A stretch of 33,365 bases of DNA, taken from positions 1 to 33,365 of the forward strand of contig JAIEBK010000146.1 in assembly GCA_029070945.1 (NCBI GenBank), in the 5' to 3' direction. Source of the stretch: Muribaculaceae bacterium. Lineage in GTDB: Bacteria > Bacteroidota > Bacteroidia > Bacteroidales > Muribaculaceae. This document shows positions 1 through 6,177 of this stretch, in pieces (the stretch's first letter is position 1; every line of letters starts with the position of its first letter). Position numbers and translations under genes: made by a program. The notes beneath the pieces were generated by a model. The model worked only from the letters and a program-made list of their open reading frames with translations. It made no database searches and was not told the DNA's origin.

Positions 1-37
1 AGTGTTAAAACGGGTCAAAAATAGGCATTTTAACACT
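1..37 (-). promoter_or_regulatory. Inverted repeat around a Bacteroidota-type -7 box
   Basis: AGTGTTAAAA at 1-10 is the exact reverse complement of 28-37. On the minus strand the loop contains TATTTTTG (23 down to 16), which fits the Bacteroidota -7 form TAnnTTTG. It would drive a gene left of the window, or the hairpin may end the fimbrial operon, whose stop codon lies at 79-81. A second, smaller inverted repeat (GAAATT 45-50 / AATTTC 57-62) lies between. No clear -33 box is seen, so the promoter reading is tentative. Confidence 0.35.
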
Positions 38-78
38 TCTGATGGAAATTTTTGGGAATTTCAGCCGATTTTGAGGAA

Positions 79-1299
79 TCAGTTCGGTAGCCAACCGAGC
101 GGAGCAGATTCATAGGTGTCGGGATGGCAGATGGTCAGTCGGTGAAGCCCGGAACCATAACCGAGACAGTCGGTCTTATACTCTTCAAGCTCGTCAGCTG
201 TCAGAGGGCGAACCAGACGGGAAAGGCCGACATCATCATTAAGAACACTCCAATTATATGCCTTGACTTCAGTTCCGTCGTAATGAATGAACAGTATCGT
301 TCCTGCTCTTTCTCCGGAAGAGCCATTCTGCGCTGTGAAATATCCATATCTTGGCCAGGCATTGACATCAGGTCCGTCTCCAATATAAGGCCAATAACAA
401 CATACCGGAATGTCTGTATCATTTTCCCTCGCCGTTATTTCCGAGAGTAAATACATCCTCATCTTCGACATCCGCATTTTCGCACAACAGGCCTCTATCA
501 ATCCGGCATCAGGGAAAACCCATGTATTATAATTGTCATTATCATAAAAGCACGAAGTTACATCTGATTCTCCGGAACACCTGTATTTACCAAGCCAGTT
601 CAACCTCTTATTCGCCAGGCCGGAACGTTTACTGTAACTGACCTCCTCTCCCTTGTATAACTGGTGCTGACTCTCCGAAAAAGTTGTCAGGCCATCGTCA
701 ATAAACTTAAATGGAACCATAATAAGCATCTTACCGCTATAATTGTAAGCCTGCCTCTTTTTCCCATCGTCATCTCTCCCTACATATGCATAATTTATCC
801 AATCAGCGGAAGTGCTTTGAACATTACGGTCCATTATCATCCACGCTCTGTCATCATGCCTGATGACAACATCGTCGACAATGGCTTTACGCGGTTTTAC
901 AGTCAATGAATATGTGACGGATTTTTCCTCACAGGAGAGTGTGACGTCCCTTTGTATAGCAGGATCATCGGGCCCCATAGCCCCTACAGAGATGTAAAAG
1001 ACATCGGTCCCGGAATTTATTATGGATATCGCTTCATTACCGATCTGCGAACATAAAATCAAATCTCCGTTTTTGGAAATTTTCTGATTTTTCTGTTCCA
1101 AAAATGATTCCTTGCAATACATATAGACATCCGATCTATCCATTGAGATTCTTCCTTCCAACGGCCATTCAAGAGTTGACGAGACGCCGACAGGCACACC
1201 ATCGCCTATAGTCCCGTCGACATAGACCTTGAACGGTATGTCGATGAAAGAGTTGAAGCACTCCGGATCAAAACCGTCAATTTCAATCTCCTTTCTCAC
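79..1299 (-). pseudogene. Distal part of a split fimbrial lipoprotein (tip/anchor-like)
   Basis: This 406-residue frame opens with GTG five bases after the stop of the upstream frame (1305-2837), inside a 17-bp tandem duplication (1292-1325). It has no signal peptide or lipobox, although its relatives would be surface proteins. If one repeat copy is removed the two frames join exactly, giving one protein of 913 residues. Residues from about 240 on resemble the C-terminal module of large Bacteroidales DUF4906/Fib_succ_major-like proteins: a tryptophan/phenylalanine-proline segment (WVFPDAG) followed by an acidic helix region, a YWPYIG element where relatives have YWSST, and an ending LVRPLT where relatives have VRCVR. 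This module resemblance is by eye only. It is most likely the detached C-terminal half of the upstream gene. Translation by re-initiation is possible, but the product would probably stay in the cytoplasm. The family assignment is uncertain; the split itself is read directly from the sequence. Confidence 0.7.
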
Positions 1300-1325
1300 A
1301 TGATCTATTTTCTCACATGATCTAT
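1292..1325. repeat. Exact 17-bp tandem duplication splitting a gene
   Basis: The unit tttctcacatgatctat occurs twice without a gap, at 1292-1308 and 1309-1325; the flanking bases (c at 1291, c at 1326) break the repeat on both sides. On the minus strand the second passage through the unit produces an in-frame TAG (1307-1305). With a single copy the reading frame continues from residue 510 of the upstream frame into the downstream frame. Any copy number above one gives the same TAG at the junction, so only one copy permits the full-length protein. Confidence 0.95.
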
Positions 1326-2837
1326 CTTCACGCGATCATAAGATTGCGGAATGAGAGCAAACGGCATGCCCTCAGGAATAACGTTATCTCCGCTATCACC
1401 CGACGTACTGTTCTGACAGACATAGAGGTCAACACTCAGACTTCCTCCTTCGGGAGAATGAGCCGTAACCAGAAATTTTCCCGATAAGACATCATTACCG
1501 GAATTAATATCAGACGGACTTACTGTCAGGATTGATACCGGAAAACCCGGCTGCAGGGAGGCTGTAAAAGGATGTGCGGAATCATCTCCATCTGAAACAT
1601 ACATGACTTCAAGTATCAGGTTCCTGGATGTAAGAATCCTTACTTCCCTGCTTTCTACCGACTTTCCATCAAATTCCAGTCTACCGGTGGATAGGATAAT
1701 GAAATTTCCGGCATCATCCATAGCGAAACTACCGGCTTCCAGATCCCAATCCTCGATCACAGAGAGCCTGATCAGTGATTCCCGAGACATGTAGGCCTCT
1801 TCAGGAGTGGGAGCACCTCTGCCATTCACCGACTGGATATTGACCGTATACTTAGAATTCGCCCTTAATGAAGACTTATTTCCTGAAACGCCCAAATTGA
1901 CGCGATAATACGAGGATTCCGTATCATCCTTATATTTAGCCTTGATTATAAGTGCTGTGGACTCCCTGTCGGAAGGATGGGCATCCTGACTACCGGAAGG
2001 GAAACAGTAGACGGCTTCCCTCAGCTGCTGGCGACCATCCGCATCCGCGTCCGGAACACGGACGTATACATCGGTTCCCGATCCATCTCCATCATCAGAC
2101 AATACACCCCGTATGGTTCCGAACCGATCGTCAGGCTCTATTTCCTCCGGATTTACCGGTGTAGCGTCACGCCAGTTGCATAGAGTCACACCTTCCACAA
2201 CAAATCCACTCCCTGCATTATTAGTAAGATCTATGCGAGCCACCATCCTTCGGAACGACAGTGACGCAGACACATGAAAGCATCCATCATCACCTTTCGT
2301 GAACCGGAAATACCCGTCGTCCACGACGTTTCCACGCATCGGAAGACAACTGACCCTATCAGCCAGAATACGCTCAGCTTTGAAAAAACGCAGATATTCC
2401 CTGACATCGGTATCGGCGGCACTCCAGGACCTTACATATTCCTCAAAATTCGTGAAACCGTCAGGGACATAACAGTCGGCATTCGCCAGGGCCAGAAGCC
2501 GATAGTCAGTATCGGGCTTAAGACGCATCGGCATCTTAAATAAAAGAGCGGAAGGATCCGTCTCCGAGACTTCTCCCCTTACAGCAGCCAACGGCACATC
2601 CGTCTCAAAAGATGCTTCGGAATCATAAAACAACAGATAGGCATGGTCTATCAGCATCTCCATCCGCACGGAGCCATCGGACCTTGTCTGACTGCCATTA
2701 TCCACCGAGAACGAAATCACTGTATTCCCCGCTCCGGCATCGAAGATGTTTCGATGACGGAGATCATCGGCACAAGAAGTTATGAAAAACATCCATAATA
2801 AAGCCGATATGATGTGGCAGAGATACAGCCTGTTCAT
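1305..2837 (-). CDS. Fimbrial lipoprotein, DUF4906/Mfa-like, truncated N-terminal part
   Basis: A 510-residue frame starting with ATG and a lipoprotein signal peptide; the lipobox is FITSC with the acceptor Cys at residue 22. The mature N-terminus has an Arg-containing stretch (GSQTRSD) and then a typical fimbrillin-type beta-sandwich pattern, with AYLLFYD near residue 70 and DTDYRLLALAN near residue 112. These are seen in DUF4906 and FimB/Mfa2-type subunits of Bacteroidales pili, which act as anchors or tip proteins at the outer membrane. It lies 41 bases downstream of a fimbrillin-like gene and is surely in its operon. The frame stops at a TAG created by a 17-bp tandem duplication, and the missing 403 residues follow in another frame. 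It could be translated as a shorter secreted lipoprotein, or be inactive. The exact family is uncertain; lipoprotein export and the fimbrillin-like class are fairly secure. Confidence 0.75.
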   Translation of the reverse strand: MNRLYLCHIISALLWMFFITSCADDLRHRNIFDAGAGNTVISFSVDNGSQTRSDGSVRMEMLIDHAYLLFYDSEASFETDVPLAAVRGEVSETDPSALLFKMPMRLKPDTDYRLLALANADCYVPDGFTNFEEYVRSWSAADTDVREYLRFFKAERILADRVSCLPMRGNVVDDGYFRFTKGDDGCFHVSASLSFRRMVARIDLTNNAGSGFVVEGVTLCNWRDATPVNPEEIEPDDRFGTIRGVLSDDGDGSGTDVYVRVPDADADGRQQLREAVYCFPSGSQDAHPSDRESTALIIKAKYKDDTESSYYRVNLGVSGNKSSLRANSKYTVNIQSVNGRGAPTPEEAYMSRESLIRLSVIEDWDLEAGSFAMDDAGNFIILSTGRLEFDGKSVESREVRILTSRNLILEVMYVSDGDDSAHPFTASLQPGFPVSILTVSPSDINSGNDVLSGKFLVTAHSPEGGSLSVDLYVCQNSTSGDSGDNVIPEGMPFALIPQSYDRVKIDHVRK

Positions 2838-2878
2838 GAAGACATGTCAATCAGATTCGGAAGCGGATAGAGAATCCG

Positions 2879-4267
2879 TCAAAGGTCTACCGACTGCTCA
2901 ACCTCATCCCATTCGGCAACCGTGAATACAGCCTCGATCCACGCAGAAGTGGAACTATCAGCATCAGCCGAAGGATCAAGAGGACGCAGTAAGGCTTCAG
3001 AATGGCATCCAAGATTCTTTATGGAATTTACGGCTATCTTATAGAATTTATTACGTTCTACCTTCAATGCTCCATCCGCATCCTTTATATTGATCCTGTA
3101 AAAAGCCTCGCCTGACATAAAATGAATGATCTGATACTGACGTATCTGAACATCCGAAGTAGCCGCCGCTCTAAACGGAGCCTCCGATTCCGAGACCGTA
3201 ACCGCAAAGGTATTGCCCCCATTAAGGGCGTTGACATACCTGTTTACATCAGACGTACTGTTGAATGTGATGACATGCTTTGTATCAGGATCTATGACAA
3301 AATCCTCGAAACCATTATTCTCATCCACCACACCCACGGCATAAAAAGAGCTGTTTGGCATACCAGCCGAGCCTTTGGTCAACTTTCCGTCAAAAATATA
3401 ATAAAAGTCAGGTGTGACCGGAACGCTAAGGGTTACAAAAGTAGTATTTCCGGCCACAGGGTTACTCACGATATTCTCTGAAAGATAGTGGCAACCGTCA
3501 GCTGTGAAGTCTCCGGTCACGACCGGCAGAAACTGATTGTCGGGAACAACGGTATATCCATCGAATGTGCCGTTGGTGTGTGTGGTGAAAGATTCAAACA
3601 CATCGGTGCCGTTTGGTCTTACACGCATTCTATCACATGTCTGTGACACACGGAACTGCGTATTACCCTTACAGCTGAATCCCTGAGCCGACAAATCGAT
3701 GTTGCCCAATTTAACCTGAGTTTTTGAAACAAGACGGACAAGCTCGATCCTGAATAGGTTTGATGCAGGTATCTGTGTTGAATTCGCCGATTTAAGCACG
3801 ACCTGGGAATCACTTTTCCCAATCATAACGAACTCTTTGGATGTCTTGAGGTCGCTTAGCTTGGAAGAAAAGATGGTCTCTTCAAAATCCTGCAAGGAAG
3901 CGCCGGTTCCAATTGTAGTGCCTACTATGTTTTTCGATGAGACCGCATATATGGTCTTGAGACCGGGAGTCACATTAAATTCAACCGGCTTATCAGAGGA
4001 AAGCGTTATATCTGATTCAAATGTCTCGAGTTCATTTGCCCCGTTGAACACATACACGCTGACTTTAGAAACTTTTTTCTCCGCATCTGTGCTGAGGTCG
4101 CTTCCGGCCCTTGTAGAGGCTACGTCAAGAAGCAATTGAATTCTGGCAGTCTCGCTTACAGGAGATACCGTGATATCAAAAGGATTCCTGTCGCTCGTAC
4201 ATGACATGAACGCGGGCATAAACGAGGCCGTTAACAAGGCCAGGGAGGAGATTCTGAGTTTTTTCAT
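2879..4267 (-). CDS. Fimbrillin-like lipoprotein (type V pilus major subunit-like)
   Basis: 462 residues. The N-terminus is a lipoprotein signal peptide with lipobox AFMSC (Cys 23). After it comes a short leader ending in STRAG near residue 53; pilins of the FimA/Mfa1 group are exported as lipoproteins and then cut after such an arginine by a trypsin-like protease before strand-exchange polymerisation. The N-terminal domain shows the family pattern KVSVYVFNGANELE (residues about 68-81) and an AVSS segment. The C-terminus ends in a strand with AEWDEVEQSVDL, similar to the conserved V-x-W ending of Mfa1-like proteins. It is the first gene of a minus-strand operon with the split lipoprotein gene behind it. 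I recognise the class but not a specific named subunit. No promoter of the TAnnTTTG form was found in the 122 bases upstream. Confidence 0.78.
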   Translation of the reverse strand: MKKLRISSLALLTASFMPAFMSCTSDRNPFDITVSPVSETARIQLLLDVASTRAGSDLSTDAEKKVSKVSVYVFNGANELETFESDITLSSDKPVEFNVTPGLKTIYAVSSKNIVGTTIGTGASLQDFEETIFSSKLSDLKTSKEFVMIGKSDSQVVLKSANSTQIPASNLFRIELVRLVSKTQVKLGNIDLSAQGFSCKGNTQFRVSQTCDRMRVRPNGTDVFESFTTHTNGTFDGYTVVPDNQFLPVVTGDFTADGCHYLSENIVSNPVAGNTTFVTLSVPVTPDFYYIFDGKLTKGSAGMPNSSFYAVGVVDENNGFEDFVIDPDTKHVITFNSTSDVNRYVNALNGGNTFAVTVSESEAPFRAAATSDVQIRQYQIIHFMSGEAFYRINIKDADGALKVERNKFYKIAVNSIKNLGCHSEALLRPLDPSADADSSTSAWIEAVFTVAEWDEVEQSVDL

Positions 4268-4389
4268 GATTATTATATATTAGTTATTTTTAGATTCGCA
4301 GACTCAATTAAGTGCCATGTAGTATGAGGGTAGCAGAGTTCTTTCGCTATCGAAGCCTATAGCCATGAGCAAGGCTGACAGTAGACTGA

Positions 4390-6177
4390 TCAGTCAAGCT
4401 TTAGGACAGCGAGGAAGGCCTTCTGAGGCACCTCTACCCTGCCGATCTGCTTCATGCGCTTCTTGCCTTCCTTCTGCTTCTCGAGCAGCTTGCGCTTACG
4501 GCTTATGTCGCCTCCGTAGCATTTCGCGGTCACGTCCTTGCGTACGGCTTTGACAGTCTCGCGCGCAATTACCTTTGTGCCGATAGCCGCCTGGATAGCG
4601 ATGTCGAACTGCTGGCGCGGAATGAGTTCTTTAAGCTTCTCACACATGCGTCGTCCGAACTTCACGGAGTTGTCGGCATGAGTAAGGGTAGACAACGCAT
4701 CCACGCTCTCGCCATTGAGCAGTATGTCAAGCTTTACAAGATTGGAGGGTCGGAAATCGTGGATATGATAGTCAAAAGAAGCGTATCCCTTTGAGATGGA
4801 TTTCAGTTTATCGTAGAAGTCAATCACGATCTCTCCCAGAGGCATGTCGAAGGTTATTTCCATTCGGTTGCCGGAGATGTATTCCTGCTTGATAAGCTCA
4901 CCACGCTTTCCAAGACAGAGGGTCATGATCGGGCCGATAAACTCAGCGGCGGTGATGACAGTAGCACGTATATACGGCTCCTCTATATGGTCGATAAGCG
5001 TGGGATCGGGAAGCCCGGAGGGGTTGTGGACCTCCATCTTGTTTCCTTTCTTGTCATAGACGAAATAGGAAACGTTAGGGACAGTAGTGATGACATCCAT
5101 ATTGAACTCGCGGCCCAGACGCTCCTGAATGATCTCCATATGAAGCAGACCGAGGAATCCGCAACGGAATCCGAAGCCGAGAGCGGCCGAAGACTCCGGC
5201 TGGAATGTGAGGGAAGCATCGTTGAGCTGTAGTTTCTCAAGCGAGGCACGCAGGTTCTCAAAGTCTTCCGGATCGATCGGATAGACACCGGCGAACACCA
5301 TCGGCTTCACCTCCTCAAAGCCCTCTATGGCCTTATCGCAGGGACGCGCCACATGTGTGATGGTATCACCTACCTTAACCTCCCGCGAAGTCTTTATGCC
5401 TGAGATGATATATCCTACATTTCCGGCGGAGAGTTCCTTACGGGGTGAAAGATCGAGTTTCAGCACACCGATCTCGTCGGCATGGTATTCCTTGCCGGTG
5501 CTGACGAACTTAACGAAATCGCCGGTGCGAATGGTGCCGTTGACTATCTTGAAATATGCTATAATGCCACGGAAAGGGTTGAAGACGGAGTCAAAGATAA
5601 GGGCCTGCAGCGGAGCATCGGGATCCCCTTTGGGAGCCGGAACACGCTCCACGATAGCCTTCAGTATCTCGTCGACTCCCATACCGGTCTTTCCGGAAGC
5701 CCGTATGATCTCGGAGCGGTCGCATCCGAGAAGATCCACAATCTGATCCTCAACCTCGTCGGGATTGGCGCTTTCAAGGTCGCACTTATTGATAACAGGT
5801 ATGATCTCCAGGTTATTGTCGATGGCCATATAAAGGTTTGAGATGGTCTGCGCCTGAATACCCTGGCTGCCGTCGACAATCAGAAGCGCTCCTTCGCAAG
5901 CCGCGATCGAACGTGAGACCTCATAAGAGAAGTCCACATGTCCCGGAGTGTCTATAAGATTGAGTGTATAATGTTCGCCGTCAAGCTCATAGTCCATCTG
6001 AATAGCGTGGCTCTTGATGGTGATGCCCCGCTCGCGTTCGAGATCCATGTCATCGAGCACCTGTGCCTCCATATCTTTGGCAGAGACGGTATTCGTACGT
6101 TCGAGCAGTCGGTCGGCAAGGGTAGACTTGCCGTGGTCAATATGGGCTATGATACAGAAATTGCGGATATTTTTCAT
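4390..6177 (-). CDS. lepA: Elongation factor 4 (LepA), ribosome back-translocase GTPase
   Basis: 595 residues, the usual length. LepA is a translational GTPase that binds ribosomes and can move tRNAs backwards, acting in the cytoplasm under ionic or cold stress and in initiation. The G1 motif AHIDHGKST spans residues 11-19, the switch region RERGITIK is near 48-55, DTPGH is at 76-80 and NKCD at 130-133. These are followed by EF-G-like domains II, III and V and the LepA-specific C-terminal domain with its lysine-rich ending ([20 protein letters not shown]-type). The start ATG is followed directly by the conserved [16 protein letters not shown]. It stands alone between the fimbrial operon and the C11 peptidase, with its own predicted promoter at 6234-6265. 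Its stop codon lies inside a 12-bp palindrome (4384-4395). Confidence 0.98.

What the first reader, a model, noticed from the sequence alone, without database searches (positions are those of the whole stretch)
1292..1325. 17-bp tandem duplication switches off a surface fimbrial lipoprotein gene
Seen directly: two exact, adjacent 17-bp copies sit at the junction of two frames (1305-2837 and 79-1299). Removing one copy joins them into a single 913-residue reading frame beginning with a lipoprotein signal peptide. With two or more copies the same TAG always appears, so the gene is ON only with a single copy. Short tandem duplications in surface-protein genes can revert by slipped-strand or RecA-independent deletion, so this may be a contingency (phase-variation) switch for a pilus tip/anchor protein that was captured in the OFF state. 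A recent inactivating mutation or an assembly error are the alternatives.
Basis: partly seen in the sequence, partly recalled or inferred. Interest (0 to 1): 0.75.

Follow-up and report, generated by a model that had tools for sequence, protein, structure and literature searches.

The report
Duplication-broken fimbrial tip gene
In a gut bacterium's draft genome, a pilus-tip-like gene that is whole in its closest relatives is cut in two by a 17-letter stutter in the DNA; this looks like an ordinary, possibly revertible, knock-out mutation rather than a built-in on/off switch.

Summary
Two exact 17-bp copies (1292-1308, 1309-1325) lie where two minus-strand frames meet (1305-2837, 79-1299); the TAG ending the first frame lies inside the copy read second. 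The contig is from a Muribaculaceae MAG. In 8 of 8 close orthologs examined (of 16 other genomes with any match; 111 searched) the protein reads through this point in one frame, so this is one gene with one lesion. It sits behind a FimA-type fimbrillin gene and weakly resembles the FimD tip adhesin (below cut-off). A built-in switch is not supported: no ortholog has a 17-bp repeat there (G012 has a 6-bp in-frame pair touching the place), the exact 17-mer occurs nowhere else in 111 genomes, and the array has two copies only. Assembly error is less likely but not excluded: exact 77-base overlaps of contig ends suggest a k=77 graph assembly, whose words span the 34-bp array. Best reading: a spontaneous short tandem duplication that knocked out a fast-evolving surface gene and might revert at a low, unmeasured rate, as reported for pneumococcal capsule genes. 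Ordinary in kind; reads would settle it.

The parts
1309..1325 (-). 17-bp copy that is read first by the minus-strand gene
   Evidence: exact match to 1292-1308
1292..1308 (-). 17-bp copy that is read second; holds the TAG stop
1305..1307 (-). TAG stop codon met because of the frame shift
1305..2837 (-). N-terminal piece, 510 aa (P0001), hydrophobic start and a lipobox-like cysteine; weak match to the FimD tip adhesin model
79..1299 (-). C-terminal piece, 406 aa from the first possible GTG (P0002), no signal peptide seen by eye; aligns with the C-terminal part of the orthologs to near their last residues
1286..1291 (.). ATCTCC next to the array, resembling the unit's end ATCTAT in 17-bp register (possible relic of the slippage substrate)
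   Evidence: 1286-1302 against 1303-1319, 88%
2879..4267 (-). FimA/Mfa1-type fimbrillin gene, 462 aa, frame intact
4390..6177 (-). lepA, conserved neighbour (97.8-99.1% protein identity in the 4 relatives whose fetched DNA holds it), shows the locus is orthologous
1..71 (.). end of a ~106-bp element whose second copy lies beyond an AbiL pair on contig C162; explains the contig end

Best explanation
A single gene for a fimbrial (probably tip) lipoprotein was interrupted by one spontaneous 17-bp tandem duplication, most likely by slipped mispairing between near-repeats that bracket the unit (1286-1295 and 1320-1329: 7 of 10 bases alike, counted by hand). Seventeen is not a multiple of three, so reading shifts and meets the TAG inside the second copy. 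The predicted product is a 510-residue exported lipoprotein without the C-terminal ~400 residues; the rest, even if translated by re-initiation, would have no signal peptide. Shown: the duplication in the assembly, the frames, the stop, the whole gene in the close relatives, and no 17-bp repeat at the place in them. Inferred: presence in the organism, the slippage origin, the loss of function, and that the change is recent. A low-frequency return to one copy is expected from the precedents but was not measured; nothing shows that selection built the site for switching.
For: 8 of 8 close orthologs examined read through the site in one frame, 6 of them to a stop codon (882-939 aa, stop to stop), 2 running off their contigs further downstream. 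The window pieces align collinearly: P0001 1-510 and P0002 2-405 on G005 residues 6-516 and 515-938. Flanking residues (KIDH or KVDH; IEIDGF or IEVDGF) are conserved on both sides. No other stop or frame shift in either piece. Of 27 exact tandem arrays (unit 10-150) kept in 81 own-genome stretches, 872,974 bases, the window's is the only one with frames of 200 aa or more on both sides that overlap across the array. The tip gene's long branch (N half: W 0.63, G005 0.28, G012 0.28) is shared by the intact fimbrillin next to it (W 2.12 against 0.12-0.76), so it is no sign of decay of the tip gene alone. Precedents: short duplications in pneumococcal capsule genes (passages of PMC4022640) and 26-116 bp duplications in Xenorhabdus lrp, described as plain mutants (passages of PMC6786866).
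Against: No reads, so neither presence in the population nor fraction is shown. No second genome of this species was available. Four residues at the joint (VRKE, where 8 of 8 orthologs have T in the fourth column) are unlike the orthologs, so the site may have changed more than once or be unreliable. Short exact tandem pairs (6-8 bp) are about twice as many in the 8 orthologs as in codon shuffles (17 against 8.6) and one touches the site, which leaves some room for a slippage-prone gene. Recency is not dated.
Confidence: 0.68

Rival explanations
1. Assembly or sequencing artefact: the source organism has one copy and the gene is whole.
For: The genome is a fragmented MAG (189 contigs, 82.8% complete); the array lies 1.3 kb from a contig end; the four residues at the joint are atypical; the gene is whole at the site in all 8 close orthologs examined.
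Against: Among 147 sampled contig ends (16 of them of fully masked contigs) 4 pairs overlap by exactly 77 bases, one by 57 and one by 22, which fits a k=77 de Bruijn assembly (inference); a 34-bp array is spanned by one 77-letter word, and a 17-bp unit is shorter than any usual k (recalled), so the graph should not invent a copy. No other of the 27 arrays in the sample splits frames of 200 aa or more in this way. The contig end is explained by a ~106-bp direct repeat. The window is not among the N-bearing stretches listed.
Confidence: 0.17
2. Evolved contingency switch: the site is kept for frequent duplication and deletion, turning the tip protein on and off.
For: Surface fimbrial gene; fast-evolving fimbrial pair beside conserved lepA; tandem duplications in open reading frames can phase-vary (titles of Waite et al. 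2001 and 2003 in the reference list of PMC4022640); a 6-bp in-frame tandem pair touches the site in G012, and 6-8 bp pairs are about twofold over codon shuffles in the 8 orthologs (17 against 8.6).
Against: 0 of 8 orthologs have a 17-bp repeat or a tract at the site; the longest exact tandem unit anywhere in their genes is 8 bp, and no pair exceeds 2.33 copies. The exact 17-mer is absent from the other 110 genus genomes. Two copies only, no cycle of frames. The review PMC11868660 (passages) argues against the term where reversion has not been shown.
Confidence: 0.08
3. The two pieces still make one or two working proteins, by -1 slippage at A AAA TAG or by re-initiation.
For: The stop is preceded by four A's and the other frame is open across the site.
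Against: Absent from the 8 close orthologs examined; the RNA around the site folds no better than shuffles (z -1.05, 30 of 200 as good); the codon before AAA would not re-pair after a shift (read by hand); a re-initiated piece lacks a signal peptide (by eye).
Confidence: 0.04
4. Old pseudogene on the way to loss.
For: Frame broken; the window branch is about twice as long as those of G005 and G012 in both halves and the longest in the N half.
Against: Only one lesion in ~2.76 kb, C-terminus kept to near the last conserved residues; the intact fimbrillin neighbour has a still longer branch; in the C half G110 is longer (2.97 against 1.46).
Confidence: 0.03

Closest known systems
Spontaneous tandem duplications in pneumococcal capsule genes (type 3 locus, cap8E, tts; Waite et al. 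2001, 2003, known here only through passages and reference titles of PMC4022640)
   Same: Short duplication inside an open reading frame of a surface-related gene, causing loss of the product, in principle revertible by loss of one copy.
   Different: There phase variation was reported (by title); here there is one assembly and no reversion data. Different phylum, gene and product.
Tandem duplications (26-116 bp) in Xenorhabdus lrp (PMC6786866, passages)
   Same: Short tandem duplications among loss-of-function mutations.
   Different: There they were 3 of 25 different mutations found in one gene; in eight isolates tested no genetic reversion was seen (the passages do not show whether a duplication was among the eight). 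Here a single allele.
FimD fimbrial tip adhesin and FimA/Mfa1 fimbrillins of Bacteroidales (NCBIfam NF052322, NF038041; Pfam PF06321, PF15495)
   Same: N-terminal piece matches the FimD model over 1-361 of 664 positions; neighbour gene is a FimA/Mfa1-type fimbrillin.
   Different: 53.6 bits against a curated cut-off of 170; orthologs here are ~900 aa, and the C-terminal piece matches no family in Pfam or NCBIfam at the thresholds used.

Membership tests
Phase-variable contingency locus | Hypermutable repeat tract or recombination site | tested here: not met
   Two copies of a unit found nowhere else in 111 genomes; no 17-bp repeat or tract at the site in 8 of 8 close orthologs, though G012 has a 6-bp two-copy pair touching it; upstream of the fimbrillin gene only short inverted repeats, longest with separated arms 9 nt at 89% (4150-4500 only)
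Phase-variable contingency locus | High-frequency reversible switching shown | not testable with these tools
   No reads, no cultures; one genome per species
Inactivating short tandem duplication | Exact adjacent copies inside a gene that is whole in relatives | tested here: met
Inactivating short tandem duplication | Present in the organism's DNA, not only in the assembly | tested here: inconclusive
   Indirect only: k=77-like overlaps, single case in the sample
FimD fimbrial tip adhesin (NF052322) | Score above the curated cut-off (170 bits) | tested here: not met
   P0001 53.6 bits; N-terminal parts of five orthologs: three at 41-50 bits, two without a hit
Bacteroidales FimA/Mfa1-type fimbrial locus | Adjacent fimbrillin gene above cut-off | tested here: met
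   PF15495 29.8 (cut-off 27) and PF06321 29.3 (cut-off 21.4); but NF038041 99.7 against 130, below that cut-off
Bacterial lipoprotein | Signal peptide with lipobox cysteine | tested here: inconclusive
   Hydrophobic start followed by Cys22, invariant with two orthologs; lipobox judged by eye from recall, no predictor run

The most novel reading that the evidence does not exclude
A duplication-driven, reversible off state of a pilus-tip gene, common in wild populations of this Muribaculaceae species: near-repeats bracketing the unit, in a gene family rich in short tandem pairs, make 17-bp duplication and its loss frequent enough to give a mixed population, without any long repeat tract.
Probability: 0.1. 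Interest if true: 0.5.

Novelty: new member of a known kind. Interest (0 to 1): 0.2.

Why it matters
If real it is one more case of a surface gene of a gut commensal switched off by a short tandem duplication, a class that a gene caller would report as two unrelated proteins. It shows that comparison with relatives separates such broken genes from true gene pairs. Only evidence of reversion in a population would make it more than that.

Tried and rejected
Idea that the contig end next to the gene reflects a mixture of strains (from the 71-base match to C162): rejected; C162 begins with the other end of the same ~106-bp element and carries its second copy, so a direct repeat explains the break.

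Sequence search of solved structures: nothing useful (one hit at E 0.77, none).

Frame-shifting signal: no notable RNA fold. Invertible promoter near the fimbrillin gene: no convincing inverted repeat in 4150-4500. Paper searches: tandem deletion rates, none held with 5 of 6 terms; within-host evolution of Bacteroides fimbrial genes, none with all 5 terms; Muribaculaceae with phase variation (6 listed) and tandem duplication with phase variation and Bacteroid- (3 listed), titles and abstract starts seen, none on this. Searches were seen as listings only, except the papers named with passages.

NCBIfam results differ by how the ortholog was given: L013 and L005 nearly whole gave no family; the N-terminal part of L013 gave FimD at 46.6 bits, that of L005 none.

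Full report
WHAT IS THERE. The window is the whole of contig C53 (33,365 bases) of a 2.6-Mb, 189-contig genome that is 82.8% complete. At 1292-1308 and 1309-1325 there are two exact adjacent copies of a 17-bp unit. Among 200 dinucleotide-preserving shuffles of the window none held an exact tandem duplication of unit 15-200; the window holds one. Two minus-strand frames meet here, 1305-2837 (510 aa) and 79-1299 (406 aa). Taken without start codons the frames are 1308-2846 and 82-1335 and overlap across the array.

ONE GENE, BROKEN ONCE. I searched the 111 held genomes of the genus with the N-terminal piece: 17 had a match, the window's own included. Of the 16 others I examined at the site the 8 close ones (45-58% identity over nearly all of the piece: G005, G012, G014, G107, G109, G110, G117, G121); the other 8 are weak or partial matches (25-39%) and were not examined there, though none of their listed matches holds a stop. 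In 8 of 8 the protein runs through the site in one frame: six end at a stop codon (882-939 aa, stop to stop), G012 and G107 run off their contigs further on. On G005 the N-terminal piece covers residues 6-516 and the C-terminal piece 515-938. The residues on both sides are close to invariant. Both pieces are otherwise free of stops and reach near the orthologs' last residues. The own genome holds one match to each piece.

WHAT THE GENE IS. The N-terminal piece matches the NCBIfam model of the fimbrial tip adhesin FimD over positions 1-361 of 664 with 53.6 bits, well below the curated cut-off of 170; of five ortholog N-terminal parts three give 41-50 bits and two nothing. In Pfam it has nothing above cut-off. 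The neighbour at 2879-4267 is a FimA/Mfa1-type fimbrillin above two Pfam cut-offs, though below the NCBIfam one. The C-terminal piece matches no family, and neither piece has a solved relative. DUF4906 was not found. A cysteine at position 22 after a hydrophobic start, invariant in the three aligned sequences, suggests a lipoprotein; the lipobox was judged by eye. 'Tip protein of a Bacteroidales fimbria' is thus likely, not shown.

HOW THE DUPLICATION PROBABLY AROSE. The bases beside the array resemble the unit in 17-bp register: 1286-1302 against 1303-1319 are 88% alike, and 1286-1295 against 1320-1329 agree in 7 of 10 bases (counted by hand). Such near-repeats are the usual substrate of slipped mispairing (recalled); the origin is inference. 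None of the 8 orthologs has a 17-bp repeat at the site. One, G012, has an exact 6-bp, two-copy, in-frame pair that touches it. Over the 8 genes there are 17 exact tandem pairs of unit 6-8, none of them over 2.33 copies, against 8.6 expected from codon shuffles: a mild excess, which gives the slippage idea some support and is no switch by itself.

IS IT A SWITCH? Evidence is mostly against an evolved one: the exact unit occurs only here, twice, in 111 genus genomes; none of 8 orthologs shows a tract; and two or more copies always meet the same stop, so copy number does not cycle through frames. A review of phase variation argues against widening the term to cases where reversion has not been shown (PMC11868660, passages); another counts recombination between tandem duplications among the mechanisms of localised hypermutation (PMC4235727, one passage). 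Such duplications can revert: a paper on pneumococci cites Waite et al. 2001 and 2003, whose titles name duplications in capsule genes that control phase variation, and gives an expected reversion frequency of at most about 1e-5 where the longest insertion is nine bases (PMC4022640, passages). In Xenorhabdus, duplications of 26-116 bp in lrp were among 25 mutations judged plain mutants; eight isolates tested showed no genetic reversion, and the passages do not show whether a duplication was among them (PMC6786866, passages). So 'revertible in principle' is fair; 'switch' is not earned.

IS IT AN ARTEFACT? Not excluded. Among 147 sampled contig ends, 4 pairs overlap by exactly 77 bases, one by 57 and one by 22, apart from matches among 8 fully masked contigs; this fits a graph assembly with k=77 (inference). 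A 34-bp array is then spanned by single words, and a unit of 17 is shorter than any usual k, so a graph should not add a copy. In 81 own-genome stretches (872,974 bases, of which 24,751 N; about a third of the genome) 27 exact tandem arrays of unit 10-150 were kept after dropping overlapping and short-period ones; reading the table, only the window's has frames of 200 aa or more on both sides that overlap across the array. At L077 2672-2704 two frames of 144 and 158 aa touch by two bases, beside a 290-aa frame on the other strand; and whether neighbouring frames at the other arrays were ever one gene was not tested by homology. Against this stands that four residues at the joint are odd: VRKE, where G005, G012, G014 and G109 have E(K/N)RT and 8 of 8 have T in the fourth place.

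IS IT OLD DECAY? The window's branch in the tip-protein tree is about twice those of G005 and G012 in both halves (0.63 against 0.28 and 0.28; 1.46 against 0.82 and 0.69), but the intact fimbrillin next to it has an even longer branch (2.12 against 0.12-0.76), while LepA beyond it is 97.8-99.1% identical in the four relatives whose fetched DNA holds it, one of them in part only. The fimbrial pair is fast-evolving as a whole; a single lesion in 2.76 kb points to a recent event, without a date.

VERDICT. A real feature of the assembly and most probably a spontaneous short tandem duplication that knocked out a fimbrial tip-like gene. Ordinary in kind. Counting one- and two-copy reads would settle what remains.

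Noticed in passing
L124 (C162) 104-1830; window 1-71: An AbiLi/AbiLii pair (PADLOC AbiLi 8.5e-69, AbiLii 2.1e-21; Pfam RloB) lies between two copies of a ~106-bp element, right after the tip gene and before a glycogen synthase gene. G005 has the same layout (its element copies 94-95% like the window's end); in G014 no frame of 150 aa or more lies between tip gene and glycogen synthase. Perhaps a repeat-flanked defence cassette that comes and goes.
   Followed up: partly
window 79-4267 against 4390-6177: Fimbrillin proteins are 38.7-45.0% identical to the window's in 8 relatives and tip proteins 43.5-56.7% (N part) and 39.3-50.0% (C part), beside LepA at 97.8-99.1% in 4: a sharply bounded fast-evolving fimbrial pair.
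   Followed up: partly
window 1288-1299: Four residues at the joint (VRKE) differ from the 8 close orthologs in an otherwise conserved block, as if the site had been changed before or together with the duplication.
   Followed up: no
L003, L004, L005, L014-L018 (tip genes of the 8 orthologs): Exact 6-8 bp tandem pairs are about twice as many as in codon shuffles (17 against 8.6), one of them touching the site in G012.
   Followed up: partly
own-genome stretches, e.g. L049 9717-9761, L085 5664-5703, L086 138-198: Many of the exact tandem arrays in the sample are AT-rich, outside long frames, and 15 of 27 have unit 14.
   Followed up: no
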